Positions 129 through 17,856 of a stretch of DNA of 19,044 nucleotides are shown here, piece after piece (positions within the stretch are counted from its first letter, which is position 1; each line of letters opens with the position of its first letter). Location: positions 1 to 19,044 of the forward strand of contig JAGLYT010000005.1 of assembly GCA_023132075.1 (NCBI GenBank), written 5' to 3'. This stretch comes from JAGLHV01 sp023132075 [NCBI: bacterium] (lineage in GTDB: Bacteria > CBDUZB01 > JAGLHV01). The position numbers were made by a program, and so were the translations under genes. The notes beneath the pieces were generated by a model that made no database searches, was not told the DNA's origin, and was given only the letters and a program-made list of their open reading frames with translations.

Positions 129-1508
129 ATGAAAACAATTTTGATCGTTGATGATGAACCTGATATTCTTTGGGCATTGTCTAATGTTTTAAAGGAAAAA
201 GGATTTTTTCCTATTATGGCTCAAAACGGAAAAGAAGGTTTAAAAAAACTGGAAGAAGAACAGCCTGATTTGGCTGTTTTAGATATAAGATTACCGGATA
301 TGAATGGGATAGAATTACTTAAACGAATGAAGAGTAAAGAGCAGGATTTGTTAGTAATTATGTTTACTGCTTATGGTGAAATAAATTCAGCGGTGGAAGC
401 AATAAAATTAGGTGCATTTGATTATCTTAATAAACCGATAGCCAATGAAGAATTACTTTTGGTAATTGAAAGAGCGTTTAAGACAAAAAACCTGAACGAA
501 GAGGTAAAATTTCTCAGGCAGCGTTTACATGAAAAGATAGAAACAAAAGATATTTTGGGAAAAAGTAAGGTAATGAAAAATGTTTTTAATCAAATAAAAC
601 AAGTTAGTCCTACAGATTTAACAGTTATTTTGCAGGGAGAAAGTGGAACAGGAAAGGAAGTTGTTGCTCATTTTATTCATCAGAAAAGTTTAAGAAAGAA
701 TAAACCTTTTATTATTGTAGATTGTAGCACAATACCCGAAAGTTTAGTAGAGAGTGAACTCTTTGGTTATGAAAAAGGTGCATTTACCGGGGCGGATAAA
801 AGAAAGTTAGGATATTTTGAATTGGCTAATGAAGGAACTATTTTTCTAGATGAAATAGGAAATTTACCTTCCTCTACTCAGGCTAAAATGTTAAGGGTTT
901 TGGAAGAGCGAACAATACAACATTTGGGAGGGAAAAAAGTTATTAAAATAAATGTAAGGATTATTGTTGCTACTAATTTTACTCTGGAAGAGGCAGTAAG
1001 AAAAGGTTGTTTTAGAGAAGATTTATATCATCGTTTAAATCAGTTTATTATTTTCTTACCGCCTTTACATAATAGAAAAGAAGATATTATTCCTTTGGCT
1101 CAATATTTTTTAAAAGAAGCTAATATGGAACTGCATAAACAAATAAATTGTTTTTCGCCTGAAGTGCTTAAATTATTTAATCAGTATTCCTGGTCAGGAA
1201 ACATAAGGGAGATGAAAAATGTTATAAAAAGGGCGGTTCTTCTTGCGGAGGAAACTATTTTTCCCCGACATTTACCGGAAAGGTTTCAGCTATTATCTCC
1301 TGCCTCAAAGGAGTTTACTTCCCGGGACAAGGGAATAATTATTTCCGAATCTTTAAATTTAAAACAGGCAATTGAACAATTAGAAAAAAAAGTGATTAAA
1401 AAAGTATTGCAGGAAGTAGCCGGTAACAAGGTAAAAGCAGCAAAAGTTTTAGGTATTGATCGTAAATCGCTTTATAATAAGATGAAAAAATTTGGCTTTA
1501 AAATGTAG
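129..1508 (+). CDS. NtrC-family sigma-54-dependent response regulator (REC-AAA+-Fis HTH)
   Basis: This 459-residue protein has the standard three-domain NtrC layout and normal family length. Residues 1-120 are a receiver with acidic pocket D8/D9, phospho-acceptor D52, T80 and K102. Residues 140-375 are the AAA+ domain, with Walker A GESGTGKE at 170-177, an intact GAFTGA sigma-54 loop at 217-222, Walker B GTIFLDE at 236-242 and arginine-finger candidates R296 and R302. Residues 413-459 form a Fis-type helix-turn-helix (NKVKAAKVLGIDRKSLYNKM). The start is fixed by AAAGGAG at 117-123, five bases before ATG. A histidine kinase tail lies just upstream and a sigma-54 promoter about 340 bp downstream, so the next operon is the obvious target. 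It should act as a phosphorylation-controlled hexamer remodelling sigma-54 polymerase. The regulon name is unknown, so no symbol is given. Confidence 0.96.
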   Translation: MKTILIVDDEPDILWALSNVLKEKGFFPIMAQNGKEGLKKLEEEQPDLAVLDIRLPDMNGIELLKRMKSKEQDLLVIMFTAYGEINSAVEAIKLGAFDYLNKPIANEELLLVIERAFKTKNLNEEVKFLRQRLHEKIETKDILGKSKVMKNVFNQIKQVSPTDLTVILQGESGTGKEVVAHFIHQKSLRKNKPFIIVDCSTIPESLVESELFGYEKGAFTGADKRKLGYFELANEGTIFLDEIGNLPSSTQAKMLRVLEERTIQHLGGKKVIKINVRIIVATNFTLEEAVRKGCFREDLYHRLNQFIIFLPPLHNRKEDIIPLAQYFLKEANMELHKQINCFSPEVLKLFNQYSWSGNIREMKNVIKRAVLLAEETIFPRHLPERFQLLSPASKEFTSRDKGIIISESLNLKQAIEQLEKKVIKKVLQEVAGNKVKAAKVLGIDRKSLYNKMKKFGFKM

Positions 1509-1540
1509 AAAAATTGCCCACCATGTAGAAAAACTCCACA
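1504..1540 (+). promoter_or_regulatory. Candidate upstream activator sites for the NtrC-type regulator
   Basis: Two copies of TGTAGAAAAA start at 1504 and 1524, 20 bp apart, so they lie on nearly the same helix face. The second copy forms an imperfect dyad, TGTAGA-N5-TCCACA (1524-1540), with one arm mismatch. The first (1504-1520, ending TGCCCA) is a weaker version and overlaps the regulator's stop codon. Tandem in-phase dyads about 300 bp upstream of a -24/-12 promoter are typical of NtrC-family enhancers. Binding is inferred from position and symmetry only. Confidence 0.45.
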
Positions 1541-1836
1541 TTTGATAAATAAATAATTTATTATTTTATTAATTTTTTATTTAAGATTTTCCCTTAATTA
1601 TTTCTGCAAAATAGCTTTTTTCCCCTTATTATCAGTCCTGTCCCGTATCAAGTACGGGATAAACTCCAGCAGGAATCTATTGATGTTTTAAAACATTATA
1701 GAGTGGGAAATGAACCGCCTTAAAAAGTAGCGAACACGCAAAATGTATGTTTTTCTGAAGTCTTGTTTTTGTTAATATTTCCTTATTAATTTGAGAATTT
1801 TATTTTTTTTTGTTTTTGTTTAGTTTTTTTATGTTT
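1541..1836. other. Gene-free T-rich spacer between enhancer candidates and promoter
   Basis: No supportable reading frame is present. The stretch is strongly T-rich, with long T runs at 1799-1836 just before the sigma-54 promoter, which suggests intrinsically curved DNA. It contains the palindromic repeat at 1641-1659. It also has AA-TCTA-TTGAT at 1674-1684, which fits the core of the IHF consensus in reverse orientation but misses both outer positions. IHF-assisted looping is common for sigma-54 promoters. Here it is only a possibility. Confidence 0.4.
1641..1671. repeat. Dispersed palindromic repeat (TCCCGTA-TCAAG-TACGGGA)
   Basis: Perfect 7-bp arms TCCCGTA (1641-1647) and TACGGGA (1653-1659) flank a 5-nt loop. 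ACTCCAGCA follows at 1663-1671. The same nonamer sits immediately 3' of the GC-rich hairpin at 10647-10661, so both probably belong to one REP-like intergenic repeat family. No T-run follows the hairpin, which argues against an intrinsic terminator. Confidence 0.6.
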
Positions 1837-1852
1837 TGGCATAAAAATTGCA
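1837..1852 (+). promoter_or_regulatory. Sigma-54 (-24/-12) promoter
   Basis: TGGCATAAAAATTGCA matches the RpoN consensus TGGCACG-N4-TTGCW closely. The invariant GG (1838-1839) and GC (1850-1851) are separated by exactly 10 nt. Transcription would start near 1863, leaving a leader of about 50 nt before the ATG at 1916. A gene for a GAFTGA-bearing sigma-54 activator lies directly upstream. An overlapping sigma-70 reading exists (TTGCAC at 1848, 17-bp spacer, TATGTA at 1871), but its -10 is poor. Confidence 0.8.
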
Positions 1853-1915
1853 CAAATATATTTATAGAGGTATGTATATATTATTAAATTGTAAATGAGA
1901 TGCAAAGGGGAAAAA

Positions 1916-4900
1916 ATGAAAAAATTTTTGATTTTAATAAAACGAGAGAATATTGATAGAAAGATAATGATGGCATTAATAATAATAATTAGTATGTTGA
2001 CGATTGTTCCCCGGATGTGGGCGGTTGATTATATTTCCGTGGGTAGTGGGAATTGGAATGAAGATGCTACTTGGGATAATCCCGGTTATCCTGACGGGGT
2101 AGATGATACAGTTACTATTACCAATGAGCATACGGTAGGTATTACTGCCGATCTTACCTGTGGTGCTGTGACTATAAATAGTGGTGGAGTGGTAAATCAT
2201 ACTGCAATTGATGGGACATGGATTGTTCAGGGGGATATTTTAGTTATGGGGACTTTAAGTTTAAGAACAAGGACAACTACTAAGATTGCCCCGGGATTAT
2301 ACGGTATTATTGTGGAATCAGGAGGTGTTTTTAATGCCAAGGGAGACTGGCGTTTTCATGATTGCATAATTACTGCCTTAGACCCGGATCATAATACTTA
2401 TATTTATTTGAAAGATGGTTCTCAAACCACATTAGAATACTGTCAAATAAGTGAAATGGGAAGATGGGAAAACCTTAAAACAGGGATATATATTGAGAAT
2501 GTTGATGGGGATATGCCAAATGAGGGGGTACTTATAAAAGATTGTTATATAAGCAATAACGAATATGGTATTTATATGATTGGGTGTTCAAATAACAATG
2601 AAGCTAACGGAATGGGAATTATTGATACTGTTGTCTGGAGTTGTAGAGTAGGAATCTGGATGTTTGTGTGTTCTTCCAATACACTCCAAAACAATCATTG
2701 TCATGATAACAATAGAGGTAGTATAGAGGGAGCAGGTATTCGTCTTTTTGGTGGTGGTAATAATATCATAACCGGTAATACTTGTTATAAAAATGAATTG
2801 CTTGGGATTTTAATCGAAGACAGTAATAATAATACTTTAAATAGTAATACTTGTTATAGCCAAGCTCTTGATGGCAGTATTAGACTTTATAATAGTCACA
2901 GTAATCAATTAAACAATAATGTTTCTTATAGTGATGGAAATGGTATTGCTTTATATGAAAGTAATAATAACACTTTGACTGGAAATATAAGTTATAGTAA
3001 TGTTACTGGGCTGATTTCCTCCAATAGTACGGGGAATGAACTTATAAATTGTAATTTTGGCACCATTGGAGAAAATATGGCGGGAGATATTTATTTAAGC
3101 GATTCTACACTTACTTTAAAAAATTGTCAATTAGCCAGTACGACTGAAGTACGTACTACGGGCTTGATTAATCCTGGAAGTTGGATTATTTCGCAAAAAC
3201 ACGACCAGATACCAGGAGTAGTCAGGATATGGGGAGATTATAGTATTCCTGCCGGTACAACCAATTGGCGATATGATACGGAATTGTATTCCGGTAGTGG
3301 TGATGCCAATGTGCAAAAAAAGATAGAGTTTTATTCCACACCGATAGGCACAGAATTCATTATAGAAAACGGAAATACACTAAATATAATCGGGGGTTCT
3401 CAAACGAATCAGAAGACTTTGCTTTATAGCGGGGATAGTACTTTTTGGGGTTTTAATGTGAATGGCAGCATAAATTGTGATTATACAAATTTTAGTAATT
3501 TAGATACAAACGGTTTAAATATTAGTAGTGGTGCTACGATTATCAAATTCGACCAGACATCGTTTGGTAATGTAGCTGATGGAGGTAGTCATCTAACGAT
3601 AGATGCTATAGATTGTAGCTTTGACGGATGTGTTTTCGATGATAGTGGGACCTACGATGTAACTGTAAATAACGATGCTGATTTAGTTTTTGTTAATTCC
3701 ACCCGGGGTAACCTTGCCGATAATTTTATGGATGTAAATTCGTCTATTCAGTGGGTTGAAGATAGTATTACCGGATTTATCGATAGTGGAGGTGTAGACA
3801 TAACTTTTTATAGTATTGAAACGGATGAAATTTTTGTTACGGTCAACGATAATGATGAGAATCTCCACAATGGTTCACAACAGCAGGTAAGTGTAACTAT
3901 ATCTAATAGTTCTACCGGTGATGAGGAAGTACTTACCTTAGTTGAAACCGGAAATGATACCGGGATATTCAGAAATACAGTAGGCCTTCCTGTAAAACTC
4001 AATTCTACGGCTACCAAGGGTAATTATGAATTGGAAGCATTGGGTACAGAAATAGTTAATGTGACCTATGTTGATGCAAATGACCCGGGGGATGTTTCCA
4101 ATGATACTGTCAGAATTTACCCCAAAGAGCCGATGGTGATATCAATTATACCTGATGAAGGAGCTGTAGGTTTGTTGCCGGACAGTTTTGTTAGAGTAGT
4201 ATTTAACAAGGAAATGGATAAAACCTCTGTAGAATCAGCAATGAGTTTAAAAGTTGTGAGAGATAAAGATGGACAGGTTATAAATGAGTTGGTAAGTGGA
4301 GTGTTTACTTGGGAAAATGATACTACTGTTATTTTTCAACCGAATGAACCATTGAATAAAAATTATACTTATGAGGTAGTTGTTTTAATTGATGCACAGG
4401 ATGTGGAGGGTAATCCTTTGCTCGGAGCTAAGGACTGGAAATTTGTTACCATAATGGAGAGTACAGTTACTAATACTGTGTTGGGGGAAGATGAAAGCAC
4501 GGAAGTAGTTTTAGCAGCCAATGCTTTGCCGGAAGATGGATATATTAAGATTAGTTTAGAGTCAGCAGATCAAGAGGGAATTATTCAGGCAGAGAGTAAA
4601 CTTAAAAGGCAAGGGGATACTTGTAAATATCCCCTTGATAATACATTTCGGGAATTGAATGCGTATGATATAAACGGAAATTTATATAACATAACTTTTA
4701 ATGCGGCAGTAAATTTAACTATTCCTTATTTAGATAATGATAACGACGGGATTGTTGACGGCACATTTCCGTTAGTAAGGGAAAAGACTTTGGCTATACA
4801 TTATTTAGACGAAAATAATAATTTATGGGTAAGGATACCGGGTTCAGTGGTAGATGTAGAAAGTAATATAGTTACGGCAAAGGTTCCGCACTTTTCCACT

Positions 4901-5200
4901 TTTGTATTGATGGGGGCAAATGATACTAATTTAACTTCTGCTTACGCCTTTCCTGTTCCCTTCAGAGCCTATCAAGGACATAATCAGATTACCTTTACCG
5001 GACTTTCTTCGCAGGTCACGATAAAGATATTTACCATTAGCGGAGAGTTGATTGTAACGCTTAAAGAGGAAGATGGGGACGGGCAATTAATCTGGGATGT
5101 AAAAAATAAGGGAGGAAAGAGATTAGCCAGCGGGGTATATATTTATTATATAGAAAACGAAAGAGAACATAAGAGCGGGAAATTGATGATAATAAAGTAA
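1916..5200 (+). CDS. Exported giant beta-helix protein with Big_5 and FlgD/type-IX-like C-terminal domain (paralog 1)
   Basis: I start this 1,094-residue protein at 1916, not at the in-frame ATG 1895. AAAGGGG lies five bases before 1916, and MKKF then leads into a long hydrophobic signal segment ending near VPRMWA. Order: a GNW/TW beta-rich module (about 30-80); NosD/pectate-lyase-like parallel beta-helix rich in SNNNTL ladders (about 160-410); a module with NDNDEN and ETGNDTGIF (about 620-740); a Big_5-like Ig domain with FNKEMDKTS (about 740-850); an acidic DNDNDGIVDG calcium-type loop near 945; and a C-terminal domain (about 1000-1094) with AFPVPF, IKIFTISGEL and LASGVYIYY. That tail resembles FlgD-Ig/T9SS sorting domains. 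It probably ends up on the surface or outside the cell. No catalytic site is evident, so adhesion or polysaccharide binding is only inferred. A 41-bp gap leads to the PorV-like gene. Confidence 0.85.
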   Translation: MKKFLILIKRENIDRKIMMALIIIISMLTIVPRMWAVDYISVGSGNWNEDATWDNPGYPDGVDDTVTITNEHTVGITADLTCGAVTINSGGVVNHTAIDGTWIVQGDILVMGTLSLRTRTTTKIAPGLYGIIVESGGVFNAKGDWRFHDCIITALDPDHNTYIYLKDGSQTTLEYCQISEMGRWENLKTGIYIENVDGDMPNEGVLIKDCYISNNEYGIYMIGCSNNNEANGMGIIDTVVWSCRVGIWMFVCSSNTLQNNHCHDNNRGSIEGAGIRLFGGGNNIITGNTCYKNELLGILIEDSNNNTLNSNTCYSQALDGSIRLYNSHSNQLNNNVSYSDGNGIALYESNNNTLTGNISYSNVTGLISSNSTGNELINCNFGTIGENMAGDIYLSDSTLTLKNCQLASTTEVRTTGLINPGSWIISQKHDQIPGVVRIWGDYSIPAGTTNWRYDTELYSGSGDANVQKKIEFYSTPIGTEFIIENGNTLNIIGGSQTNQKTLLYSGDSTFWGFNVNGSINCDYTNFSNLDTNGLNISSGATIIKFDQTSFGNVADGGSHLTIDAIDCSFDGCVFDDSGTYDVTVNNDADLVFVNSTRGNLADNFMDVNSSIQWVEDSITGFIDSGGVDITFYSIETDEIFVTVNDNDENLHNGSQQQVSVTISNSSTGDEEVLTLVETGNDTGIFRNTVGLPVKLNSTATKGNYELEALGTEIVNVTYVDANDPGDVSNDTVRIYPKEPMVISIIPDEGAVGLLPDSFVRVVFNKEMDKTSVESAMSLKVVRDKDGQVINELVSGVFTWENDTTVIFQPNEPLNKNYTYEVVVLIDAQDVEGNPLLGAKDWKFVTIMESTVTNTVLGEDESTEVVLAANALPEDGYIKISLESADQEGIIQAESKLKRQGDTCKYPLDNTFRELNAYDINGNLYNITFNAAVNLTIPYLDNDNDGIVDGTFPLVREKTLAIHYLDENNNLWVRIPGSVVDVESNIVTAKVPHFSTFVLMGANDTNLTSAYAFPVPFRAYQGHNQITFTGLSSQVTIKIFTISGELIVTLKEEDGDGQLIWDVKNKGGKRLASGVYIYYIENEREHKSGKLMIIK

Positions 5201-5241
5201 AGATAAAAAATAAATGATTTAAAAAAGGGAGGAAAATAAAA

Positions 5242-7239
5242 ATGAAAAGAAAAGAAATTCTAAAAGAGGAAGTAAAAGATTCGGTAAGGATGTTTTTTAT
5301 TCTTGGCCTGGCAATATTCTGTGTTTTTTATTTTCAACTTATTGCTTTTGGCAGTAGTTCGGAAGGGACTACGGGAGCGAATTTTCTTAAGTTAAAAGTG
5401 GGAGCAAGAGGGGCAGGAATGGGAGGGGCATTTTGCGGAGTGGCGGATGATGTAGGTGCGGTTTATTGGAACCCGGCAGGGTTAGGGCAATTAGAGAGGA
5501 AAGAAGTAAGTTTGATGTATCTTAAATGGTGGGAAGGGATAAATTATCAATTTATGGGATATGCACATCCGCTGGGAAGGAAAGGAGTATTAGGGGGGAG
5601 TGTTTATTATTTAACGATAAATGATATAGATGGATATTCCGAAACTGGTATGCCGTCAAATAATCTAACGGCGTATGATTTAGCCGTAGCCCTATCGTAC
5701 GGTAGGAAGCTAATGGGGAATAAAAAAATAAGCGATCAATGGAAAGTAGGTCTATTCGGAGGGATAAGTATAAAATTTATCCAGGAAAAGTTAGATGATA
5801 AATCGGCGGTAGCGTATGCATTGGATATAGGAAGTTTATATAAAACCCCTGTAGAAAATTTATCGTTAGGATTTAATGTACAGAATTTGGGAGGGGAAAT
5901 AAAGTTTGTAGAAGAGGGGGATGAATTACCGTTGAATATAAAGGTAGGGACAGGATACCGGCTGCTTAACGGAGATTTTCTTTTAGCCTTAGATTATAAT
6001 TTACCTGCTGATAACGACGGATATATAAATACGGGTGTAGAATATTGGTTGTGGGATATAATCAGTTTAAGGTTGGGATATGGGAGTAACAATGAAGTAG
6101 AGGAAGGAATAAGTTATGGTTTGGGAATGAATAACGGAGAAATAGGGCTTGATTATGCCTTTGAGCCGTATGGGATATTAGGAAATACACATCGGGTAAG
6201 TTTAAGCTGGAGATTTGGGAAAAATTACCGGGCGAATTTAATAGACGTTCGGGTAAAGGAATATAATAAACAAGGGGTAAGGGATTATCGTAAGAAAGAT
6301 TATATTAATGCCTACCAGGGATTTAAAAACATATTGGTATTAGATTCAGATAACAAGAAAGCGAAAAAATATATAAAGAAGATACAGGACGAATTCAAAG
6401 AGGTAAAAATGAATAAAGAGATAAGAGAGCATTTAGATTTAGGAATGAAATATTATGAAGAAGGGAAGACACTTAAAGCGAGGGAAGAATTTGAAGCGAT
6501 ATTAGCTTTAGTGCCGGAACAAGAGGAAGCGAAAGAATGGATAATAAAGGTAAGGACGAAGTTAGAAGAATACAAAGAGGAAGAAATAAAGGAAATGTAT
6601 AAAGCAGGATTAAAGTTGTATAAGAAGAAAAGATATGTGCAGGCCAGGGAAGAGTTTCAGAAGGTAATATTCTTAAATTCGCGACATGAGAAAGCGAGGT
6701 ATTACATATATACCATTAATAAAAAATTAAAAGAGCTAGGAGAAATAGAGCGGAAGAAAGAGATAAAGGGATATTATGCAAAAGCGATGGAAATGCATAA
6801 GGGTGGGGAATTAAAAGAAGCGATAAAAGAATTAAAGAAAGTATTAAAATTAGATTCCAGGCATAAAAAAGCGAAAGATTTCCTGGTTAAGGTAAGAGCC
6901 GAATTAAGAGGGAAATTAACTAAGAAGTATTATGAGAAAGGTGTTGTGTTGTATAAAGAAGGGAAATTAGAAGAAGCGATAGTAAGTTTTAAAAAAGCCC
7001 TAAAACTTACATCAAGGCATTTGAAAGCGAGGGAAAATTTAGAGAAAGCAGAATTAAAATTGAAGCGAAACAAAGAGGCAGCTGCAAATAAATATTATGA
7101 AGAGGGGTTAGAGGCATATAATAAAGGGAAAATGGAGAAAGCAGCAGAGTTATGGAATAAGGCTTTGGAATTTGTTCCCCAACATTCCAAAACGCGAAGT
7201 GCATTACAAAGGGTAAAAGGGTATAAAGATAAAAAATAA
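5242..7239 (+). CDS. PorV/PorQ-family outer-membrane barrel fused to six TPR units
   Basis: The protein has 665 residues. Residues 15-36 form a hydrophobic export signal. Residues 41-327 resemble the PorV/PorQ (UPF0164) barrel: it opens GTTGANFLKLKVGARGAGMG, has VYWNPAGLG at 74-82, and closes with GNTHRVSLSWRFG at 314-326. Residues 336-660 are about six lysine- and glutamate-rich TPR-like helical hairpins, each with a YY-EG-A-EEF/L pattern and a long linking helix. In Bacteroidota, PorV is the type IX receptor that carries cargo to the PorU sortase through the cargo C-terminal domain. Both neighbours carry such a tail. GGGAGG at 5227-5232 supports the start. The gene is only 17 bp from the next one, so it is co-transcribed. 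The TPR part would lie in the periplasm if the barrel inserts normally. True PorV function is inferred. A generic porin-like role is the alternative. Confidence 0.85.
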   Translation: MKRKEILKEEVKDSVRMFFILGLAIFCVFYFQLIAFGSSSEGTTGANFLKLKVGARGAGMGGAFCGVADDVGAVYWNPAGLGQLERKEVSLMYLKWWEGINYQFMGYAHPLGRKGVLGGSVYYLTINDIDGYSETGMPSNNLTAYDLAVALSYGRKLMGNKKISDQWKVGLFGGISIKFIQEKLDDKSAVAYALDIGSLYKTPVENLSLGFNVQNLGGEIKFVEEGDELPLNIKVGTGYRLLNGDFLLALDYNLPADNDGYINTGVEYWLWDIISLRLGYGSNNEVEEGISYGLGMNNGEIGLDYAFEPYGILGNTHRVSLSWRFGKNYRANLIDVRVKEYNKQGVRDYRKKDYINAYQGFKNILVLDSDNKKAKKYIKKIQDEFKEVKMNKEIREHLDLGMKYYEEGKTLKAREEFEAILALVPEQEEAKEWIIKVRTKLEEYKEEEIKEMYKAGLKLYKKKRYVQAREEFQKVIFLNSRHEKARYYIYTINKKLKELGEIERKKEIKGYYAKAMEMHKGGELKEAIKELKKVLKLDSRHKKAKDFLVKVRAELRGKLTKKYYEKGVVLYKEGKLEEAIVSFKKALKLTSRHLKARENLEKAELKLKRNKEAAANKYYEEGLEAYNKGKMEKAAELWNKALEFVPQHSKTRSALQRVKGYKDKK

Positions 7240-7256
7240 AGAGAGGGGGAAAAAAA

Positions 7257-10200
7257 ATGAATAAAATTTTAATAAGTCGAAAGAGTATTGAAAGAAAAAA
7301 AATGATGGTATTAATAATGATGATAACGATCATGTTGACGGTTGTTCCCCGGATATGGGCGGTTAATTATACTTCCGTTGGCAGCGGGAATTGGAACAAT
7401 TCCGCTATCTGGGACCAGGCTGGCTATCCTGACGGAGTAAACGATACTGCTACTATTGTCAATGGACATACGGTAACCATTACTGCCGATCTTACCTGTG
7501 GTGCAGTGACTATAAATAGTGGTGGGGTGGTAAATATTAGTTGGGGTTCTGTGACCTGGACCGTCCGGGGAGATATTTCGGTTAGTGGTAATTTAATGCT
7601 TGGAACCGGCGATATTGTCAAAATAGATTGTATTACTACACCGGTATTATATGGCATTATTGTTGAGTCAGGAGGTATTTTTAATGCCATTGGAGAATCG
7701 TATGGGAATTGTAGAATTATCGCTTTCAACCAAAATTATAATAGCTATATCTACCTGAAAGATGGTTCCCGCACTACATTTAAGCATTGTGATATAAGTG
7801 AAATGGGAAGTTGGATGAACCCAAAATACGGTATATACATTGAGGATGTTGATGGGAGTGTCCCCGGAGAAGGAGTACTTATAGAGAATTGTGATATTCA
7901 CCATAATGGAAAATATGGGATTTATATGTCCGGATGTTCCAATAATAATGCGGCTAATGGGAAGGGAATCATTGATACCAAAGTGAGGGATAATATACAA
8001 GGAGTCTGGCTGGTTAATTGTTCTTCCAATACCTTTGATAGTAATGATTGTTTTGACAACAATGCAGGAATAGAAGACGGAACAGGTGTTTCTCTTTCCG
8101 GTGGGGGTTATAATAATCTGATTAATAATAATTGTTGTAATAATCAAATGATTGGGATTTCAATTCAAAACAGTAATAATAATATTTTAAATAGTAATAC
8201 TTGCTATGGTCAGTGGAGTCGTGCGGGTATTGAGCTTTATAATAGTGATAATAATCAATTGAACAATAATATTACTTATAATAATTCAACCGGTATTTCC
8301 TTAATTTCGAGTAATAATAATATCTTGGTCGGACATGTGAGTCATAGCAATACTTTTGGATTGAATTGCGTTGGTACAGGTAACGAACTTATAAATTGTA
8401 ATCTTGGCACTTTTGGAAAAAACACCCAGGGCGATATTTCTTTATGGAATTATAATATTAGTACACTAACTTTAAAAAATTGTCAATTAGCCAGTACGAT
8501 TGCAATAAATACTACTGGTTTTAGTGTGGGAAGTTGGATTATTTCTCAAAAACATGATGAAATACCAGGGTTGGTTAAAATCTGGGGAGATTATAGTGTT
8601 CCTGCCGGAACAACCAACTGGCGATATGATACGGAATTGTATCCTGGTAGTGGGGATGCTGATGTGCAAAAAAAGATAGAATTTTATTCTACATCTATAG
8701 GCACAGAAGTCACTGTGGAAAACGGAAATATACTAAATATCGGGGGTTCCCAAACAGCTCAAAAAACTTTGCTTTATAGTGGAGATAGTACTTTTTGGGG
8801 TTTTACTGTGAATGGCAGTATAAATTGTGATTATGCAAACTTTAGTAATTTGACTCCAAATGGTTTGAATATTGCCAGTAGTGCTACGATTATCAAACTT
8901 GACCGGACATCGTTTAGTAATGTAGCTGATGGGGGTGGTCATCTAACGATAGATGGTGTAGATTATACTTTTGATAGCTGTGTTTTTGATAACAGTGGGG
9001 ACTATGATGTAATTGTAAACAACGATGCAGATTTAATTTTTATTAATTATACCCGGGGGAACTTTGCCGATAATTTTTTAGATATAAACTCATCTATTCA
9101 ATGGATTGGAACGAGTGAGACTCACTTTAGCGATAGTGGTGGTGTAGACAGAACTTTTTACAGTATTGAGACGGATGAAATTTTCGTTACAGTCAATGAC
9201 AATGATGAAAACATCCATGGTGGTTCACAACAACAGGTAAGTGTAATTGTATCTAATAGTAGCACCGGGGATGAGGAAGTACTTACCTTAGTTGAAACCG
9301 GAAATGATACCGGAATATTCAGAAATACAACAGGACTCCCTGTCATTCTCAATTCTACCGCTGCCAAGGGGAATTATGAATTGGAAGCATTGGGCACAGA
9401 AATGATTAATGTGACCTATGTTGATGCAAATGACCCTGGGGATACTTCTAATGATACTGTCAGGATTTACCCTAAAGAGCCGGTAGTAGTATTGATGGAA
9501 CCAGACGAAGGAGCAGTTGGTTTGTTGCCGGACAGTTTTATCAGAATAGAATTTAGTAAGGAAATGGATAAAACATCTGTAGAATCAGCAATGAGCTTGA
9601 AAGCAGTAATGGATAAAGATGGGCAGATTATAAATGAATTGATTCTTGTAAGTTTTAATTGGGAAGATGATTTTACAGTTACTTTAAAGCCTGCTAAAGA
9701 GTTGAATAAAAATTATACTTATGAGGCAGTTATTTCAACAGGTGCAAAGGATGCAAGCGGTAATTCTTTATCCCAGAGCAAAGTATGGAAATTTACTACC
9801 ATAATGGAGAGTACAGTGACTAACACTGTAGTTGGTGAAGATGAAGATACACAGATAGTATTAGCTCCTGATGCTTTACCGGAAGATGGATATATTAAGA
9901 TTAGTTTAACAACGGTTAATCAAGAGGGGATTGTTTATGCAGAGAGTAAATTAAAAAAGCAGGGAGATACTTGTAGATATCCCATTAATAATACATTTCG
10001 TGAATTGAATGCTTATGATATAAACGGAAATTTATATAACATAAATTTTAATGCGGCAGTAAACTTAACTATTCCTTATTCGGATGATGATAACGACGGG
10101 ATTGTTGACGGCACATTTCCTTTGGTAAGGGAAAAGACTTTGGCTATACATTATTTAGACGAAAATAATAATTTATGGGTAAGGATCCCCGGGTCGATAG

Positions 10201-10550
10201 TGGATACGGAGAGAAATGTAGTTACAGCTAAAGTATTACATTTTTCCACTTTTGTATTGATGGGGGCAAATGATACTAATTTAACTTCTGCTTATGCCTT
10301 TCCGGTTCCGTTCAGAGCATATCAAGGGCATAACGAAATTACCTTTACCGGGCTTTCTTCTCAGGCAACGATAAAGATATTTACTATTAGCGGAGAGTTG
10401 ACTGTAACGCTTAAAGAAGAAGATGGAGACGGACAACTTATTTGGGATGTAAAGAATAAGGGGGGAAAGCTCTTAGCCAGTGGGGTATATATATATTATA
10501 TAAAAAACGAAAGAGAACATAAAAGCGGGAAATTGATGATTATAAAATAA
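7257..10550 (+). CDS. Exported giant beta-helix protein with Big_5 and FlgD/type-IX-like C-terminal domain (paralog 2)
   Basis: This 1,097-residue paralog of the protein at 1916-5200 has the same domain order throughout. A signal segment ends near VPRIWA. It is followed by a GNW module, an asparagine-ladder beta-helix (about 165-415, e.g. SNNNIL), the ETGNDTGIF module, a Big_5 domain with FSKEMDKTS, the DDDNDGIVDG loop and the LASGVYIYY tail. GAGAGGGGGA precedes ATG 7257. The C-terminal 450 residues and the GNW module are nearly the same as in paralog 1. The beta-helix and the strands after it differ much more, including indels. At DNA level 10125-10186 is identical to 4775-4836 (62 nt). This is a tandem duplication with the PorV-like gene between the copies. 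No enzyme motif is visible. The role is inferred to be a second cargo of the same export route. Confidence 0.85.
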   Translation: MNKILISRKSIERKKMMVLIMMITIMLTVVPRIWAVNYTSVGSGNWNNSAIWDQAGYPDGVNDTATIVNGHTVTITADLTCGAVTINSGGVVNISWGSVTWTVRGDISVSGNLMLGTGDIVKIDCITTPVLYGIIVESGGIFNAIGESYGNCRIIAFNQNYNSYIYLKDGSRTTFKHCDISEMGSWMNPKYGIYIEDVDGSVPGEGVLIENCDIHHNGKYGIYMSGCSNNNAANGKGIIDTKVRDNIQGVWLVNCSSNTFDSNDCFDNNAGIEDGTGVSLSGGGYNNLINNNCCNNQMIGISIQNSNNNILNSNTCYGQWSRAGIELYNSDNNQLNNNITYNNSTGISLISSNNNILVGHVSHSNTFGLNCVGTGNELINCNLGTFGKNTQGDISLWNYNISTLTLKNCQLASTIAINTTGFSVGSWIISQKHDEIPGLVKIWGDYSVPAGTTNWRYDTELYPGSGDADVQKKIEFYSTSIGTEVTVENGNILNIGGSQTAQKTLLYSGDSTFWGFTVNGSINCDYANFSNLTPNGLNIASSATIIKLDRTSFSNVADGGGHLTIDGVDYTFDSCVFDNSGDYDVIVNNDADLIFINYTRGNFADNFLDINSSIQWIGTSETHFSDSGGVDRTFYSIETDEIFVTVNDNDENIHGGSQQQVSVIVSNSSTGDEEVLTLVETGNDTGIFRNTTGLPVILNSTAAKGNYELEALGTEMINVTYVDANDPGDTSNDTVRIYPKEPVVVLMEPDEGAVGLLPDSFIRIEFSKEMDKTSVESAMSLKAVMDKDGQIINELILVSFNWEDDFTVTLKPAKELNKNYTYEAVISTGAKDASGNSLSQSKVWKFTTIMESTVTNTVVGEDEDTQIVLAPDALPEDGYIKISLTTVNQEGIVYAESKLKKQGDTCRYPINNTFRELNAYDINGNLYNINFNAAVNLTIPYSDDDNDGIVDGTFPLVREKTLAIHYLDENNNLWVRIPGSIVDTERNVVTAKVLHFSTFVLMGANDTNLTSAYAFPVPFRAYQGHNEITFTGLSSQATIKIFTISGELTVTLKEEDGDGQLIWDVKNKGGKLLASGVYIYYIKNEREHKSGKLMIIK

Positions 10551-10553
10551 AAA

Positions 10554-10604
10554 AAAGACAGTTAACAAAGACAGTTTAATTGGTTTAAATTTGTCGAATT
10601 GGTT
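10554..10604. repeat. Short direct repeats after the cassette
   Basis: AAAGACAGTT occurs at 10554-10563 and 10567-10576, a 13-bp period. AATTGGTT occurs at 10578-10585 and 10597-10604. These lie directly behind the last cassette gene and form no T-tailed hairpin. They may be replication-slippage debris or a protein site, and I cannot decide between them. Confidence 0.35.
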
Positions 10605-10637
10605 AAAGGATAAAAAATATAAAGACCCTCTTTGAAG

Positions 10638-10796
10638 ACTGGCGGATCCGCCTGAGGCGGACTCCAGCAAAATAAAAAAAGGCACAGAGGCACAAAGTAA
10701 AAGAAAAAGGCAATAGACAATTATAAGTGATGGGTTGAAAAAAATTTGAATTTGCTTGCCTGCTTATCCGCCAATCTTTAAGGCGGGCCCGCCAGT
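10638..10796. repeat. MITE-like element with GC-rich inverted termini
   Basis: The left end, ACTGGCGGATCCGCC (10638-10652), matches the reverse complement of the right end (10782-10796) at 13 of 15 positions. Each end contains a 12-bp palindrome (GGCGGATCCGCC and GGCGGGCCCGCC). Just inside each end is a further GGCGG/CCGCC hairpin, at 10647-10661 and 10767-10786. The 159-bp unit is non-coding and AT-rich between the ends. It is far richer in G+C at its termini than its surroundings. I see no clear target-site duplication. Two oppositely oriented copies of one REP-like repeat would look the same. Confidence 0.5.
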
Positions 10797-10840
10797 TTGT
10801 AATGAGGGAATTTATGGGTTTGGAGTTATTTTAAAATATC

Positions 10841-10869
10841 TTGACAAAAAACAAAGAAAATATTAAATT
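10841..10869 (+). promoter_or_regulatory. Sigma-70-type promoter of the sensor kinase gene
   Basis: TTGACA (10841-10846) is a perfect -35. After a 17-bp spacer comes TAAATT (10864-10869) as the -10. Transcription would start about 75 bp before the kinase ATG. This separates the two-component genes from the sigma-54 cassette upstream. Confidence 0.6.
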
Positions 10870-10949
10870 TAAATTGTGAGTGCAAAAAGTAAATATTGTT
10901 TTACAAGAGATAAATATAAGAAAACAAGAAAAAGTAAAGGTAAAATAAG

Positions 10950-12374
10950 ATGAAAATAAAAACTGAGTTTACGTTGTTTGCCAGCGTGCTTATAATAATA
11001 GTTATTTTAGGTGTAAGTATCTTTCTTTTTCTCTTTGAGAAACAGTTCTTGATTGAAGAAATTAAAAAGGGTGAAAGTAGTTCGATAGAGAATTTTGCCC
11101 AGCTTTGTAAGGAAGCATTAATTACCGATGATGAAATACTTCTTTTAAATTATATTAATGTAATTAAAAAAACGAATGAGGCTATAGTATACGGTTTTTA
11201 TCTGGACGATAATGACAGGATTCTTACTTCTACCAAGAACAAATTAATTAAAAATGTTTTAAAAAGTTCTGCAGGAAGAAAAGCAAAAAAAACTAAAAAA
11301 TTTCTAAGGCAAGTATATACTAATCCATTAAATGGTGAACTTCTGGATATAGTATCTATTCCTGTGATTGTAAGTCAAAAGAAAACCGGTATTGCTCAAA
11401 TAGGTTTTTCCCGGCGGGTTATTAACAAGAGGATAAAAGAAATAGTAGATAAAACACGGGAACGCATATTGCAGGTAGCATTAGTCTCTTTAGTTGTAGG
11501 AATTATAGGGGCGTTCCTTTTATCCAGAAAGATAACCTTGCCCATTAGAAAATTGGCTCAGGGAGCAAAAACCATAGGAGACGGTAATTTAGATACAAAA
11601 ATTGTTATTAAAACTAAAAACGAATTAGGTTCACTGGCCGGGGAGTTTAATCGAATGGCAGAAAAATTAAAAGAATTGGACCGAATGAAGAAGGATTTCG
11701 TTTCCAGTGTTTCCCATGAATTGAGGTCTCCGCTTACCGCTATTCAAGGATATCTTGACCTTTTTATCAATACCCCTCCGGAAAAAATGAATGAAGAAAG
11801 AAGAATTAAGGCCTTAAACATTATGAAAAGCGATACAACTCGATTGACTCGTTTTATCAATGATGTATTAGACCTGGCTAAAATAGAGGCAGCTCAATTG
11901 GAGGTAGTTAAAGAACAGGTAAATATTGCTCAAATAGTTGAGGAAATATTTATTTTATTCACTCCTTTAACTGAGGAAAAACAGATTAAAACGACTATGG
12001 ATATATCTCCTGATATAAAACCAATTTTAGCTGATTCTGATAAGATAAAACAGGTGATTACTAATTTGGTCAGTAATGCTTTTAAATTTACTCTTTCGGG
12101 AGGAAGAATAACTATTTTTGCCAAGGATAAAGGTGACAGCCTGCAAATTAGTGTTCAGGATACAGGAGCGGGAATTCCCCCGGATGCAGTAAATTATGTA
12201 TTTGATAAATTCCGTCAAGTCCGTAAGGCTTCCGGAGGGTCTGGTCAACCCAAGGGGACGGGATTGGGTTTAGCTATTGTAAAAGGTATTGTTGAAGCTC
12301 ACGGTGGTAAGATATGGGTAGAGAGCCAATTAAACCGGGGAAGCATATTTCATTTTACATTACTCAAAAAATAA
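10950..12374 (+). CDS. Membrane sensor histidine kinase (extracytoplasmic sensor-HAMP-HisKA-HATPase)
   Basis: The 474-residue kinase starts with a membrane helix at about 7-29. An extracytoplasmic sensor follows (about 30-172) that looks like a single Cache/PAS-type fold, with YGFYLDDNDRILTST and DIVSIPVIV strands. The second membrane helix is at about 173-192. HAMP occupies about 193-247. HisKA carries SHELRSPLTA with phospho-histidine H256. HATPase_c has an N box with N372 and N376, G1 DTGAGIP at 404-410, and G2 GTGLGL at 436-441. All catalytic motifs are intact. The ligand is unknown. It has its own promoter upstream, and a REC-GGDEF regulator follows 158 bp downstream, its likely partner. 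It is a separate kinase from the one cut off at the left edge. Confidence 0.93.
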   Translation: MKIKTEFTLFASVLIIIVILGVSIFLFLFEKQFLIEEIKKGESSSIENFAQLCKEALITDDEILLLNYINVIKKTNEAIVYGFYLDDNDRILTSTKNKLIKNVLKSSAGRKAKKTKKFLRQVYTNPLNGELLDIVSIPVIVSQKKTGIAQIGFSRRVINKRIKEIVDKTRERILQVALVSLVVGIIGAFLLSRKITLPIRKLAQGAKTIGDGNLDTKIVIKTKNELGSLAGEFNRMAEKLKELDRMKKDFVSSVSHELRSPLTAIQGYLDLFINTPPEKMNEERRIKALNIMKSDTTRLTRFINDVLDLAKIEAAQLEVVKEQVNIAQIVEEIFILFTPLTEEKQIKTTMDISPDIKPILADSDKIKQVITNLVSNAFKFTLSGGRITIFAKDKGDSLQISVQDTGAGIPPDAVNYVFDKFRQVRKASGGSGQPKGTGLGLAIVKGIVEAHGGKIWVESQLNRGSIFHFTLLKK

Positions 12375-12455
12375 AATAAATAAACTAACTTGCAAAATAG
12401 AAAAAAATGTTATAAAATCATTTTTTAAGTAATTAAGAAACAAAAAACAAACTAA

Positions 12456-12479
12456 TGCTCAGCAGTTTACTGCTGAGCA
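12456..12479. promoter_or_regulatory. Perfect dyad between kinase and response regulator
   Basis: Arms TGCTCAGCAGT (12456-12466) and ACTGCTGAGCA (12469-12479) are perfectly complementary across a TT centre, giving 11 bp per arm. No T-run follows on the + strand, so an intrinsic terminator for the kinase gene is not supported. An operator or an RNA hairpin limiting read-through into the regulator gene is possible. It stands out as GC-richer than the AT-rich flanks. Confidence 0.55.
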
Positions 12480-12532
12480 GTTGATTAAATTGAAATTATT
12501 TAATAAAGAAAGAGTAGAGAAAGGAATAAATA

Positions 12533-13462
12533 ATGAAAAATAAAATATTGGTTGTTGACGATGAACCCAATATTCGGGAAATGATTAAAGATTCTTTAGA
12601 GTTGGCAGACTATACGGTAGTTATGGCCACTAATGGTAAAGAGGCATTGGAAAAGATTTATAGTGAAGTTCCTGATTTAATTCTTTTAGATGTAAGGATG
12701 CCTGAAATGGGAGGATACGAGGTTTGTCAGAAAATAAGAGATGATTTATTAGTAAGAAATCTCCCCATTATTATGTTGACAGCTCAGGGAGAAGAAAGGG
12801 ATGAATTAATGGGGTTAAGTAAGGGAGCGGATGATTATTTGGTAAAGCCCTTCCGGACTGCATTACTTTTAGCCCGTATAGAGATGGTATTACGGCGTAC
12901 TATGGAAAATATGGATTCTAACCCTTTGACCCATTTGCCCGGGAATAATGCTATTATTAAAAACATCGAAGCAAGAATTAATTCACAAAATTCTTTTGCG
13001 GTAATTTATATGGATTTAAATAAATTTAAATCCTTTAATGATTATTATGGTTTTGTTCGGGGAGATGGAATGATTAAATTCACAGAAAAGGTAATTGTAG
13101 AGACATTCAGAGATTTAGGTAATTCAGAAGATTTTCTGGGACATATTGGTGGAGATGATTTTATTGCTATTACCTCTCCCGATAAAGTAGAAATTACCTG
13201 TAAACAAATCATTAAAGTTTTTGATTCAATGGTTCCTGATTTATATAATGAAGAAGACAGAAAAAAAGGGTACATTATAATTCAGGATAGAAGAGGTGAA
13301 AAAAGGCAATTTCCTTTTGTTTCCATAGCTATTGCGGTGGTAACCAATAAAAACAAAAAAATAACCCATCCGGCCGAAGTAAGTGCTGTTGCTACGGAAT
13401 TAAAGAAATTCGTTAAGAAGGAAATCAAGAGTGCTTTTATTGTGGACAGAAGGAAGAAATAA
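12533..13462 (+). CDS. Response regulator with receiver and variant GGDEF (GGDDF) domain
   Basis: The protein has 309 residues. Residues 1-120 are a receiver with D9/D10, phospho-acceptor D53, T83 and K105, all intact. Residues 128-300 are a GGDEF-type domain. It has PLTHLPG at 131-137, the metal/substrate segment DLNKFKSFND at 161-170, and signature GGDDF at 206-210. Active diguanylate cyclases normally have GG(D/E)EF, so the E-to-D change makes c-di-GMP synthesis uncertain. Binding without catalysis is possible. The start has AAAGGA about nine bases upstream. The gene probably works with the sensor kinase before it, from which it is separated by a perfect dyad. The domain call is secure. 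The enzymatic activity is open. Confidence 0.92.
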   Translation: MKNKILVVDDEPNIREMIKDSLELADYTVVMATNGKEALEKIYSEVPDLILLDVRMPEMGGYEVCQKIRDDLLVRNLPIIMLTAQGEERDELMGLSKGADDYLVKPFRTALLLARIEMVLRRTMENMDSNPLTHLPGNNAIIKNIEARINSQNSFAVIYMDLNKFKSFNDYYGFVRGDGMIKFTEKVIVETFRDLGNSEDFLGHIGGDDFIAITSPDKVEITCKQIIKVFDSMVPDLYNEEDRKKGYIIIQDRRGEKRQFPFVSIAIAVVTNKNKKITHPAEVSAVATELKKFVKKEIKSAFIVDRRKK

Positions 13463-13727: not shown

Positions 13728-15032
13728 ATGGAAAAATTTACTTTTAAAGCAGGAGTTCACCTTCCGGCTTGTAAAAAATTGACTATTGGGGAAGAAATAA
13801 AAGAAACAAGTATTCCTCAGCAGGTAGTTATCCCTTTATCTCAGCATATTGGTTGTCCTGCACAATCAATAGTTTCTAAGGGGGAAAAGGTAAAAGTCGG
13901 TCAAAAAATAGGAGAAGCACAGGGGAATGTTTCCGTTCCTGTTCATTCCAGTATTTCAGGAGAGGTGGTTGATATTTGCCCGCAATTACATCCTGTTTCA
14001 GGAAAGAAAGCTTTGTCGGTAATTATTAAATCGGATGGGCGGGATGAATGGATAGAAAAGGGAAAAAGACATGAGGATTATTTTCGTTTGTCCTCAAAAG
14101 AAATTTGTAACATTATTAAAGAAGCAGGTATTGCAGGTTTGGGAGGAGCGGCTTTTCCCACCCATATAAAGTTATCTCCCCCTAAAGAGGTAGATACCGT
14201 TATTTTAAATGGGGTAGAATGTGAACCTTATCTTTCCGGCGATGAACAGTTGATGATTAAACATCCGCTGGAGATCATTGAGGGTTTAAAAATAATAATG
14301 CAGACAGTAAAGGCTTCCTGGGGAATTGTGGGGATTGAAGACAATAAGCCGCGGGCCATAGATTTAATGAAAAAAGAAATTGCCAAACAACCCAATATAA
14401 GTTTAAAAATCTTAAAAGAAAAATATCCGCAAGGCGGTGAAAAACAGTTAATTAAAGCTTTATTAAACAGAGAGGTTCCTTCCGGGGGATTACCTATGGA
14501 TGTTGGGGTCTTAGTGGATAATGTGGGAACTTCTTTTGCCATAAGAGAAGCAGTAATTCGGGGTTTTCCCCTGGTTTCCCGAGTGGTGACGGTAACCGGT
14601 TGGGGAGTTTTTTCCCCTAAAAACTTAAGAGTAAGAATAGGCAGTTCTATTTCTTTTTTAATTGAAGAATGTGGAGGGTTTAGTTTCGTTCCGGGGAAAG
14701 TGATTATGGGTGGTCCGATGATGGGCATTACTCAGTATAATTTGGAAGTTCCTGTCGTAAAAGGAACTTCGGGAATTTTGGTTTTCGGTCAGCAGGAAGC
14801 AGAGAAAGAGAATATACGGGATTGCATTCGTTGTTCTAAATGTATAGATGCTTGTCCTATGGGTTTGCTTCCCTGTATGATTGCTCTTTATGCCCAGAAT
14901 CAGGATTGGGAAAAAGCAAAAGAATATAATCTCTTAGATTGTATGGAATGCGGTGCTTGTACCTATGTTTGTCCGGCAAAGAGGCCTATTGTTCAATATG
15001 TAAAATGGGCAAAAGACAAATTAAAGTGTTAA
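13728..15032 (+). CDS. rnfC: Rnf electron transport complex subunit C
   Basis: RnfC is the peripheral NADH/FMN-binding subunit, which passes electrons between NAD(H) and the other Rnf subunits. At 434 residues it is the short, Clostridia/Thermotoga-like form without the long C-terminal extension of some proteobacterial RnfC. Visible features are an N-terminal barrel-sandwich part, the flavin/NADH-site segment GLGGAAFPTHIK near 137-148 and the NGVECEPYLSGD segment near 160-171. Two [4Fe-4S] motifs lie at the C terminus: C366-C369-C372-C376 and C405-C408-C411-C415. It is first in the CDGEAB order, directly behind the promoter at 13596. An 85-bp gap separates it from rnfD. Confidence 0.97.
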   Translation: MEKFTFKAGVHLPACKKLTIGEEIKETSIPQQVVIPLSQHIGCPAQSIVSKGEKVKVGQKIGEAQGNVSVPVHSSISGEVVDICPQLHPVSGKKALSVIIKSDGRDEWIEKGKRHEDYFRLSSKEICNIIKEAGIAGLGGAAFPTHIKLSPPKEVDTVILNGVECEPYLSGDEQLMIKHPLEIIEGLKIIMQTVKASWGIVGIEDNKPRAIDLMKKEIAKQPNISLKILKEKYPQGGEKQLIKALLNREVPSGGLPMDVGVLVDNVGTSFAIREAVIRGFPLVSRVVTVTGWGVFSPKNLRVRIGSSISFLIEECGGFSFVPGKVIMGGPMMGITQYNLEVPVVKGTSGILVFGQQEAEKENIRDCIRCSKCIDACPMGLLPCMIALYAQNQDWEKAKEYNLLDCMECGACTYVCPAKRPIVQYVKWAKDKLKC

Positions 15033-15117
15033 AAAATTGTAAAAGATAATTAATCCTGTAGCTTGCTGAGGGGTAGTTGATTTTTGAAGTTGGTAATTTA
15101 TAACAGGGAGTTTTTTT

Positions 15118-16050: not shown

Positions 16051-16052
16051 AA

Positions 16053-16601: not shown

Positions 16602-16602
16602 A

Positions 16603-17190: not shown

Positions 17191-17219
17191 CCCTGTCCGT
17201 ATTAAAGGAAGATACAAAA

Positions 17220-17807: not shown

Positions 17808-17856
17808 TCTGGTCTTGGAATTTGTCAAATATAAAGAGAAATAGATAGGGAATAAA

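What the first reader, a model, noticed from the sequence alone, without database searches (positions are those of the whole stretch)
1916..10550. Cargo-receptor-cargo cassette: two giant beta-helix proteins around a PorV-TPR fusion
Both flanking proteins end in a FlgD/type-IX-like C-terminal domain. The middle gene encodes a PorV/PorQ-like barrel, the family that binds such tails in type IX secretion. Gaps of 41 and 17 bp indicate one transcript. I do not know a described system with this layout. It could be a dedicated two-partner export unit in a lineage far from Bacteroidota.
Basis: partly seen in the sequence, partly recalled or inferred. Interest (0 to 1): 0.75.

Follow-up and report, generated by a model that had tools for sequence, protein, structure and literature searches.

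The report
Surface proteins with a private receptor

Summary
The triad is real. Genes A (1916-5200) and C (7257-10550) encode beta-helix proteins ending in a type IX (T9SS) type A-like sorting domain; the tail's predicted fold is closest to PorZ and PorU CTDs. Gene B (5242-7239) is a PorQ/PorV-family barrel with a TPR extension. C is a tandem relative of A, absent between B and the kinase in sister genome G002. The recurring unit is cargo - PorV-TPR - Cache/HAMP histidine kinase, with a regulator after it, seen in paralogues and two other MAGs. On fetched contigs of three genomes of the genus, 36 of 67 tail genes have an adjacent same-strand PorV gene (shuffles: mean 8.9, maximum 20). Best reading: a T9SS-like translocon-shuttle-signal module with dedicated, probably retaining, receptors; coupling of the TPR arm to the linked sensor is inferred. 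New variant of a known kind.

The parts
1916..5200 (+). Gene A: signal-peptide-like N-terminus (by eye), right-handed beta-helix, Big_5 Ig domain, C-terminal T9SS type A-like CTD (1094 aa); predicted cargo
4127..4450 (+). Big_5 domain of A (residues 738-845); present in all five cassette cargos scanned
4910..5197 (+). CTD of A (last 96 residues, ends KLMIIK): PorZ-tail model 58 bits, TIGR04183 32 bits on this stretch alone; AlphaFold pLDDT 92, best PDB match PorZ CTD 5m11 (Z 13.3)
5242..6237 (+). Gene B, barrel part: PorV/PorQ family outer-membrane barrel (PorQ model 124 bits, PorV model 81 bits, both below equivalog cut-offs; PDB 6h3i_F PorV E 7.6e-12)
6238..7239 (+). Gene B, C-terminal TPR extension of about 335 aa, inferred periplasmic
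7257..10550 (+). Gene C: tandem relative of A (74% aa, 80% DNA identity), same CTD; predicted second cargo of B
10260..10547 (+). CTD of C (95% identical to that of A over 96 aa)
10950..12374 (+). Histidine kinase: periplasmic Cache-like sensor (weak match), HAMP, HisKA, HATPase; its five best non-self matches in the genus all follow PorV-TPR genes
12533..13462 (+). Response regulator with GGDEF domain (linked output)
129..1508 (+). NtrC-type response regulator upstream; possible but untested link

Best explanation
A and C are Sec-exported surface proteins whose C-terminal domain is a T9SS type A-like sorting signal. They cross the outer membrane through a SprA/Sov-like translocon encoded elsewhere in the genome and are received by B, a PorQ/PorV-type barrel co-encoded as their dedicated receptor. 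Because no PorU-type sortase was found, the CTD is probably not cleaved and the cargo stays docked on B, as PorZ stays on PorQ. B's C-terminal TPR arm, inferred periplasmic, stands in for the separate PorE-type periplasmic adaptor; in this cassette it most likely touches, directly or through a partner, the Cache/HAMP histidine kinase encoded next to it, so that the loaded or ligand-bound state at the surface can be reported to a response regulator. Shown: families, tail fold, tandem relation of A and C, systematic cargo-PorV pairing, a SprA homologue, failure to find motor, ring (GldN) and sortase with known models, and statistical linkage of long-extension PorVs to Cache/HAMP sensors. Inferred: signal peptides, actual export, CTD docking, retention, and TPR-sensor coupling.
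For: PorV/PorQ family. Tail: 62 of 67 tails match TIGR04183 and 53 of 67 the PorZ model at E<=0.01; 54 tails end exactly at the C-terminus, 49 with K and 5 with R last, 40 with K at -6; best folds PorZ 5m11, PorU 6za2, mirolase 8qb1, with a CTD bound in the SprA-PorV complex (8glk) at Z 9.1. Pairing 36 of 67; tail and PorV distances correlate, r 0.53 over 17 representative pairs, p 2e-4 = floor of 5000 permutations. SprA homologue: whole-protein E 3.6e-44, 0 of 14 named control genomes; SprA in 12 of 14 PorV-rich and 3 of 27 other genomes and in 21 of 21 genomes searched through PorV loci, two of them G001 and G002. Sensor linkage: 4 of 8 PorV families with a >=300 aa extension against 0 of 18 others, p 0.005; cassette also in L136 and L137.
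Against: SprA homologue is below the equivalog cut-off (150 of 200 bits) and has no Pfam hit. 31 of 67 tail genes have no adjacent PorV, 22 of them with more than 800 bp of contig downstream. FlgD models also match many tails: 44 of 67 for NF005176. The PorU model, which in this genus matches only through its tail, also rings in 2 of 14 control genomes, Thermotoga maritima and Haloferax volcanii, so weak tail matches may not be specific. The barrel model of B failed (pLDDT about 20-30), so no docking test was possible. In the window the kinase is 399 bp beyond C with a promoter-like site (TTGACA-17-TAAATT, 10841-10869) in the gap. Tail/PorV correlation can arise from whole-operon duplication. 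In one of the four linked families the sensor carries a SpoIIE phosphatase, not a kinase, and one of the 8 long-extension families is Ig-OmpA, not TPR. No motor to energise transport was found. Strong C25 peptidase matches exist in 6 other PorV-rich genomes, so the lack of a sortase is not general.
Confidence: 0.5

Rival explanations
1. Same cargo-receptor pair, but the kinase is only an operon neighbour that regulates expression; B's TPR arm is a structural or peptidoglycan-side anchor with no signalling role, like PorE behind PorP.
For: PorV barrels in the same genus also carry OmpA (L048, L095, L078, L076) or a polysaccharide-export domain (L047), i.e. generic periplasmic adaptors; PorE contains TPR and OmpA domains and is proposed to bridge PorP to the cell wall (PMC9143113, passages; PMC12204202, passages). 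399-bp gap with a promoter-like site before the kinase.
Against: Linkage is confined to PorVs with long extensions (4 of 8 families against 0 of 18) and to Cache/HAMP or HAMP sensors with varied outputs; gaps of 5 bp or a 4-bp overlap between PorV and kinase in paralogous cassettes.
Confidence: 0.3
2. A complete but diverged T9SS: motor and ring proteins exist and are too diverged for the models used.
For: SprA itself scores only 150 bits; the models are, as far as I recall, built on Bacteroidota proteins.
Against: The 14 named control genomes rang for none of the three models. PorK and PorW were not searched.
Confidence: 0.2
3. The barrels are anchors only; cargo reaches the surface by another route, as reported for PorA of P. 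gingivalis.
For: [quoted passage not shown]
Against: SprA homologues co-occur with PorV expansion (12 of 14 against 3 of 27) and the tails carry a terminal lysine pattern.
Confidence: 0.12
4. B is a FadL-like small-molecule transporter and the neighbours are incidental; tails are ordinary FlgD-type Ig domains.
For: Weak Toluene_X/FadL and FlgD_ig matches; 44 of 67 tails match a FlgD model at E<=0.01.
Against: Adjacency far above shuffles; PorZ and PorU folds above the first unrelated Ig domain (Z 13.3 and 11.3 against 9.2), FlgD only from rank 17 in Foldseek.
Confidence: 0.03

Closest known systems
PorQ-PorZ subcomplex of the P. gingivalis T9SS attachment complex
   Same: Barrel scored higher by the PorQ than by the PorV model; tail scored by, and folded like, the PorZ CTD; PorQ holds PorZ on the surface, consistent with 1:1 (PMC5562754, passages)
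   Different: Cargo body is a beta-helix, not beta-propellers; barrel carries a TPR arm; no PorU sortase or GldL/M/N found; many paralogous pairs per genome; both scores below equivalog cut-offs
Type B CTD cargo with its cognate PorP/SprF shuttle (F. johnsoniae, P. gingivalis PG1035-PorP-PorE)
   Same: Receptor gene usually directly downstream of its cargo gene; one receptor per cargo; periplasmic TPR/OmpA adaptor (PMC12618676, PMC9143113, passages)
   Different: Here the receptor is PorV/PorQ family and the tail type A-like; in F. johnsoniae all type A CTDs share one PorV. The TPR or OmpA adaptor is fused to the barrel
PorA-PorXY signalling in P. gingivalis
   Same: A CTD-bearing surface protein tied to a two-component system (PMC7712824, passages)
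   Different: There the mediator between surface protein and kinase is unknown; here cargo, barrel with a periplasmic arm, kinase and regulator sit together

Membership tests
Type IX secretion system (complete) | Cargo with type A CTD at the extreme C-terminus | tested here: met
   TIGR04183 24.8 and 23.3 bits, cut-off 23, but Pfam Por_Secre_tail below cut-off; 62 of 67 tails at E<=0.01; fold PorZ/PorU
Type IX secretion system (complete) | PorV/PorQ family shuttle barrel | tested here: met
   NF033709 204 bits, cut-off 90; PDB 6h3i_F PorV E 7.6e-12
Type IX secretion system (complete) | SprA/Sov translocon | tested here: inconclusive
   Homologue of about 1.73-1.75 kaa, four stretches in order along the model, E 3.6e-44, but 150 bits against cut-off 200 and no Pfam hit
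Type IX secretion system (complete) | PorL/PorM (GldL/GldM) motor | tested here: not met
   0 in G000-G002; GldM at E<=0.001 in 4 of 386 genomes, over cut-off in 3; GldL in the same 3 of 17. Sequence models only; genomes 87-97% complete
Type IX secretion system (complete) | PorN (GldN) ring protein | tested here: not met
   0 in G000-G002; the same 3 of 17 genomes ring
Type IX secretion system (complete) | PorK and PorW/SprE | not tested
   Searches exhausted
Type IX secretion system (complete) | PorU C25 sortase | tested here: not met
   NF033707 matches in G000-G002 are to its C-terminal part only (profile positions 877 and up of 1095); Peptidase_C25 0 in G000 and G002; one match in G001, 37 bits over cut-off 23, in a 380-aa frame and not followed up
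PorQ equivalog / PorZ equivalog | Score over the equivalog cut-off | tested here: not met
   PorQ 124 of 220 bits; PorZ 53 of 260 bits, tail only
Type B CTD + PorP/SprF pair | Type B CTD (TIGR04131) on the cargo | tested here: not met
   A tail has no TIGR04131 match at E<=0.01; 19 of 67 tails do
Type B CTD + PorP/SprF pair | PorP/SprF family receptor | tested here: inconclusive
   PF11751 28.5 bits over cut-off 22.3 but TIGR03519 18.3 against 90.55; the PorV/PorQ model wins

The most novel reading that the evidence does not exclude
A T9SS-like surface-sensing device found in lineages outside the phyla usually credited with T9SS: a translocon-shuttle-signal module with no PorLMN motor, in which each cargo has its own PorV-type barrel, and in which barrels with a TPR arm relay the state of the surface-docked cargo through the periplasm to a dedicated Cache/HAMP kinase or phosphatase.
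Probability: 0.3. Interest if true: 0.82.

Novelty: new variant of a known kind. Interest (0 to 1): 0.63.

Why it matters
[quoted passage not shown] Here a SprA match at E<=0.001 was found in 21 of 21 genomes searched through PorV loci (two are G001 and G002), labelled among others Elusimicrobia, Aerophobetes and Lindowbacteria; but only 4 of 21 are over the cut-off, and those are labelled Zixiibacteriota (two), WOR-3 and 'bacterium'. GldL, GldM and GldN rang in none of 14 PorV-rich genomes. If right, either another energy source drives substrate release or retention replaces release. The PorV-TPR/sensor linkage offers a testable answer to how a surface CTD protein can talk to an inner-membrane kinase, a gap noted for PorA-PorY (PMC7712824).

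Tried and rejected
Strict cargo-receptor-cargo unit: rejected, C is missing between B and the kinase in G002. Gene conversion between A and C: I first read it from unequal stretches (80% over 3.3 kb against 75% over 1.4 kb); over the same 1384 columns A-C is 74.6%, A-G001 75.0%, C-G001 74.9%, and over the last 363 bp A-C 86.0%, A-G002 84.0%, C-G002 84.8%, so it is dropped: the duplication looks about as old as the split of these genomes, and G002 may have lost C. Ordinary FlgD-type Ig tail: rejected on fold ranking and terminal lysine pattern, though FlgD models match many tails; FlgD entries do not appear in the 50 VIA rows shown, which is not evidence of a different fold. Structure of B from six sequences: barrel unusable, only the TPR helices were confident. 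phmmer of the SprA-like protein against PDB: no hit. The PorU-model matches looked like a sortase at first but cover only its tail.

Literature: seven searches of the open PMC library listed no paper whose title or abstract start describes a PorV-TPR fusion, a PorV-kinase cassette or one PorV per cargo; subscription papers are mostly not held, so this is weak. PMC7323717 and PMC8542988 (passages) and PMC11205867 (passages) gave nothing that changed the reading; PMC11205867 places T9SS in the FCB superphylum. Taxonomy: the phylum could not be named; sister genomes carry the NCBI labels 'bacterium' and 'Clostridia bacterium'. Rows dropped before the count of 67: tail-profile matches inside PorV proteins, or ending more than 15 residues from the C-end, or with E of 1e-8 or more. 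Profiles were run only on contigs fetched around hits, and the match list was cut, so weak PorVs elsewhere may be missing. PorV counts include contig-end fragments and orthologues. In one search, 21 of the 22 genomes behind the 26 loci were given; that of L156 was left out.
Full report
Observation. Three + strand genes lie at 1916-5200 (A), 5242-7239 (B) and 7257-10550 (C), with gaps of 41 and 17 bp. A and C carry right-handed beta-helix and Big_5 domains and end in a T9SS type A-like sorting domain just over the TIGR04183 cut-off; Pfam's own tail models stay below theirs. B is a PorV/PorQ-family barrel (204 bits, cut-off 90) followed by TPRs, and its residues 41-246 match the solved PorV 6h3i_F, E 7.6e-12. 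The scan of 1400-12600 lists five terminator-like sites, all on the - strand (5.7 expected), and 53 promoter-like sites (45.3 expected), so neither is informative; one promoter-like site lies in the C-kinase gap.

The tail. The last 96 residues of A, modelled with 67 tails from the genus, fold into a seven-strand sandwich at pLDDT 92. Best solved matches are the CTDs of PorZ (Foldseek E 6e-7; Z 13.3, rmsd 2.5, 93 aligned), PorU (Z 11.3) and mirolase (Z 9.6); the NucA CTD bound in the SprA-PorV complex scores Z 9.1 with 73 aligned, and the first unrelated Ig domain has Z 9.2. Of 67 tails, 62 match TIGR04183 and 53 the PorZ model at E<=0.01, but 44 also match a FlgD model. Of the 54 that end exactly at the C-terminus, 49 end in lysine and 5 in arginine, and 40 have lysine at -6. 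A nearly invariant lysine near the end of type A CTDs contacts PorV in solved complexes (PMC10994853, passages); that it is the same lysine is my inference.

The genome. The window is contig C335 of an 87% complete MAG; two other genomes share its genus and the next relatives offered are only 'same domain'. My own profiles found 67 non-PorV genes with a terminal tail and 64 PorV-like ORFs on the fetched contigs of the three genomes. 36 of 67 tail genes have a same-strand adjacent PorV (36 of 58 once those without one and with 800 bp or less downstream are set aside); PorV is downstream in 32 and upstream in 5, one gene having both; seven gaps are 4-bp overlaps; label shuffles gave mean 8.9, maximum 20 of 2000. 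The contigs were chosen because they hold hits, which raises the shuffled values. Tail and PorV distances correlate (r 0.86 over 29 pairs, 0.53 over 17 representatives, p 2e-4 at the floor), as expected for co-evolution but also for whole-operon duplication. Cargos include a subtilase (L038) and a thermolysin-like protein (L042).

Core machinery. A SprA/Sov homologue is split over two contig ends in G000 and lies in one frame in G001 and G002; the G002 protein matches only the SprA model among NCBIfam at E<=1e-5, E 3.6e-44, 150 bits (cut-off 200), in four stretches, and no Pfam family at E<=0.001. Taking PorV-rich as best E below 1e-20, SprA is found in 12 of 14 such genomes (not in G020 and G029) and weakly in 3 of the other 27 (Fisher p 4e-6). 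Through PorV loci, 21 of 21 genomes have a SprA match at E<=0.001, over cut-off in 4; two of the 21 are G001 and G002. None of the 14 named control genomes rang for SprA. GldM rings over cut-off in 3 of 386 genomes, with a fourth weak match in G328, and GldL and GldN in the same 3 of 17; those 3 are unnamed, and the 14 named control genomes ring for none of the three models. None of the 14 PorV-rich genomes rings. The PorU model matches only through its C-terminal part. Peptidase_C25 is absent in G000 and G002, with one match in G001 over the Pfam cut-off in a short frame; 6 other PorV-rich genomes (G003, G005, G009, G011, G027, G032) have strong C25 matches, so the lack of a sortase is a trait of this lineage and not of all. 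PorK and PorW were not searched. MAG incompleteness alone is an unlikely cause of the missing motor across 14 genomes.

What the conserved unit is. A and C are 80% identical in DNA overall; over shared stretches A, C and the G001 copy are equidistant, about 75%, so the duplication looks about as old as the split of these genomes. In G001 B is followed by an A/C-like gene that runs off the contig. In G002 the order is cargo tail, a 96-aa ORF, B, then kinase and regulator, with no C. A paralogous cassette (G000:C4, G001:C359, G002:C39) reads cargo - PorV-TPR - kinase, 35 and 5 bp apart, with a regulator next where the contig continues. L136 and L137, from other MAGs, show cargo - PorV-TPR - kinase - hybrid regulator/kinase (domains). 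The five cassette cargos scanned (A, C, L050, L136, L137) share Big_5 and tail but differ in N-terminal Pfam domains. In the genus, the five best non-self matches of the window kinase (879 to 294 bits) all follow PorV-TPR genes; weaker ones, from 211 bits, were mostly not examined. Of 64 PorV ORFs, 8 of 18 with an extension of 300 aa or more have a related sensor within three genes downstream, against 0 of 46 others; collapsed to families at 60% identity, 4 of 8 against 0 of 18, p 0.005. One of the 8 families (L095, L078) is Ig-OmpA rather than TPR. In one of the four linked families the sensor is Cache-HAMP-SpoIIE and a propeller-OmpA protein lies between; in another an OmpR-type pair follows, its kinase overlapping PorV by 4 bp. 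Outputs vary: GGDEF, HD-GYP, NtrC, OmpR, hybrid kinase, SpoIIE.

Spread. Among 26 loci found by PorV similarity in named genomes, 12 have a tail-profile gene as immediate same-strand upstream neighbour of PorV, 10 of the 22 outside the genus, including MAGs labelled Elusimicrobia, Aerophobetes, FCPU426, Lindowbacteria and WOR-3 (counted by hand; ORF choice by length may miscall some, and several loci stop at a contig end).

Mechanism. In F. johnsoniae all type A CTDs share one PorV, while type B cargos often have a cognate PorP/SprF gene directly downstream (PMC12618676, passages). In P. gingivalis PorQ holds PorZ on the surface (PMC5562754, passages), and PorE, with TPR, propeller and OmpA domains, is proposed to tie PorP to the cell wall (PMC9143113, passages). 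The window looks like a PorQ-PorZ-type pair in the genomic layout of the type B system, with the periplasmic adaptor fused to the barrel. Export, docking and retention are inferred. The signalling step is the boldest: PorA, a CTD protein, acts on PorY/PorX through an unknown mediator (PMC7712824, passages), and a barrel with a periplasmic arm next to a Cache kinase is what such a mediator could look like.

Noticed in passing
L047:305-1924 (G000:C120): PorV-family barrel fused to a polysaccharide-export (EpsE/XrtA-type) domain, followed by a 451-aa ORF that by eye resembles a chain-length regulator; no cargo next to it.
   Followed up: partly
L048:4168-5717, L095:8125-10203, L078:221-2227, L076:2321-4033: PorV-family barrels with C-terminal OmpA peptidoglycan-binding domains (PorE-model matches seen in L076 and L078 cover this part only); L095 and L078 also have an internal tail-like Ig stretch.
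   Followed up: partly
L033:1-1104 and L050:7986-9440: Response regulators at the same place in orthologous cassettes start almost identically, but one has an NtrC AAA+ output and the other GAF + HD-GYP: apparent output-domain swap between sister genomes.
   Followed up: partly
window 1916-5200 and 7257-10550; L010; L049: A, C and the G001 copy are equidistant over their first 1.4 kb, and A, C and the G002 copy nearly so over the last 363 bp; the duplication seems old and C may have been lost in G002.
   Followed up: yes
L041 (G000:C67) both ends: A PorV gene is split over the two ends of one contig with a short peptide overlap, as if the contig closes on itself or sits in a tandem array.
   Followed up: no
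L133, L135, L137, L138 record titles: MAGs labelled 'Clostridia bacterium' carry SprA-like and PorV-like proteins (and an LptE-like gene beside SprA in CSMAG_496); the NCBI label looks wrong for such diderms.
   Followed up: no
L109:10433-12430: Two-component-regulator-type propeller + OmpA protein between PorV-TPR and a Cache-HAMP-SpoIIE phosphatase, reminiscent of PorE.
   Followed up: partly
G001:C412 (L130): One Peptidase_C25 match (37 bits) in a 380-aa frame, the only one in the three genomes of the genus.
   Followed up: no
window 13728-18669: Apparent Rnf electron-transport operon (by eye) on the same strand directly downstream of the cassette, also present in G002.
   Followed up: no
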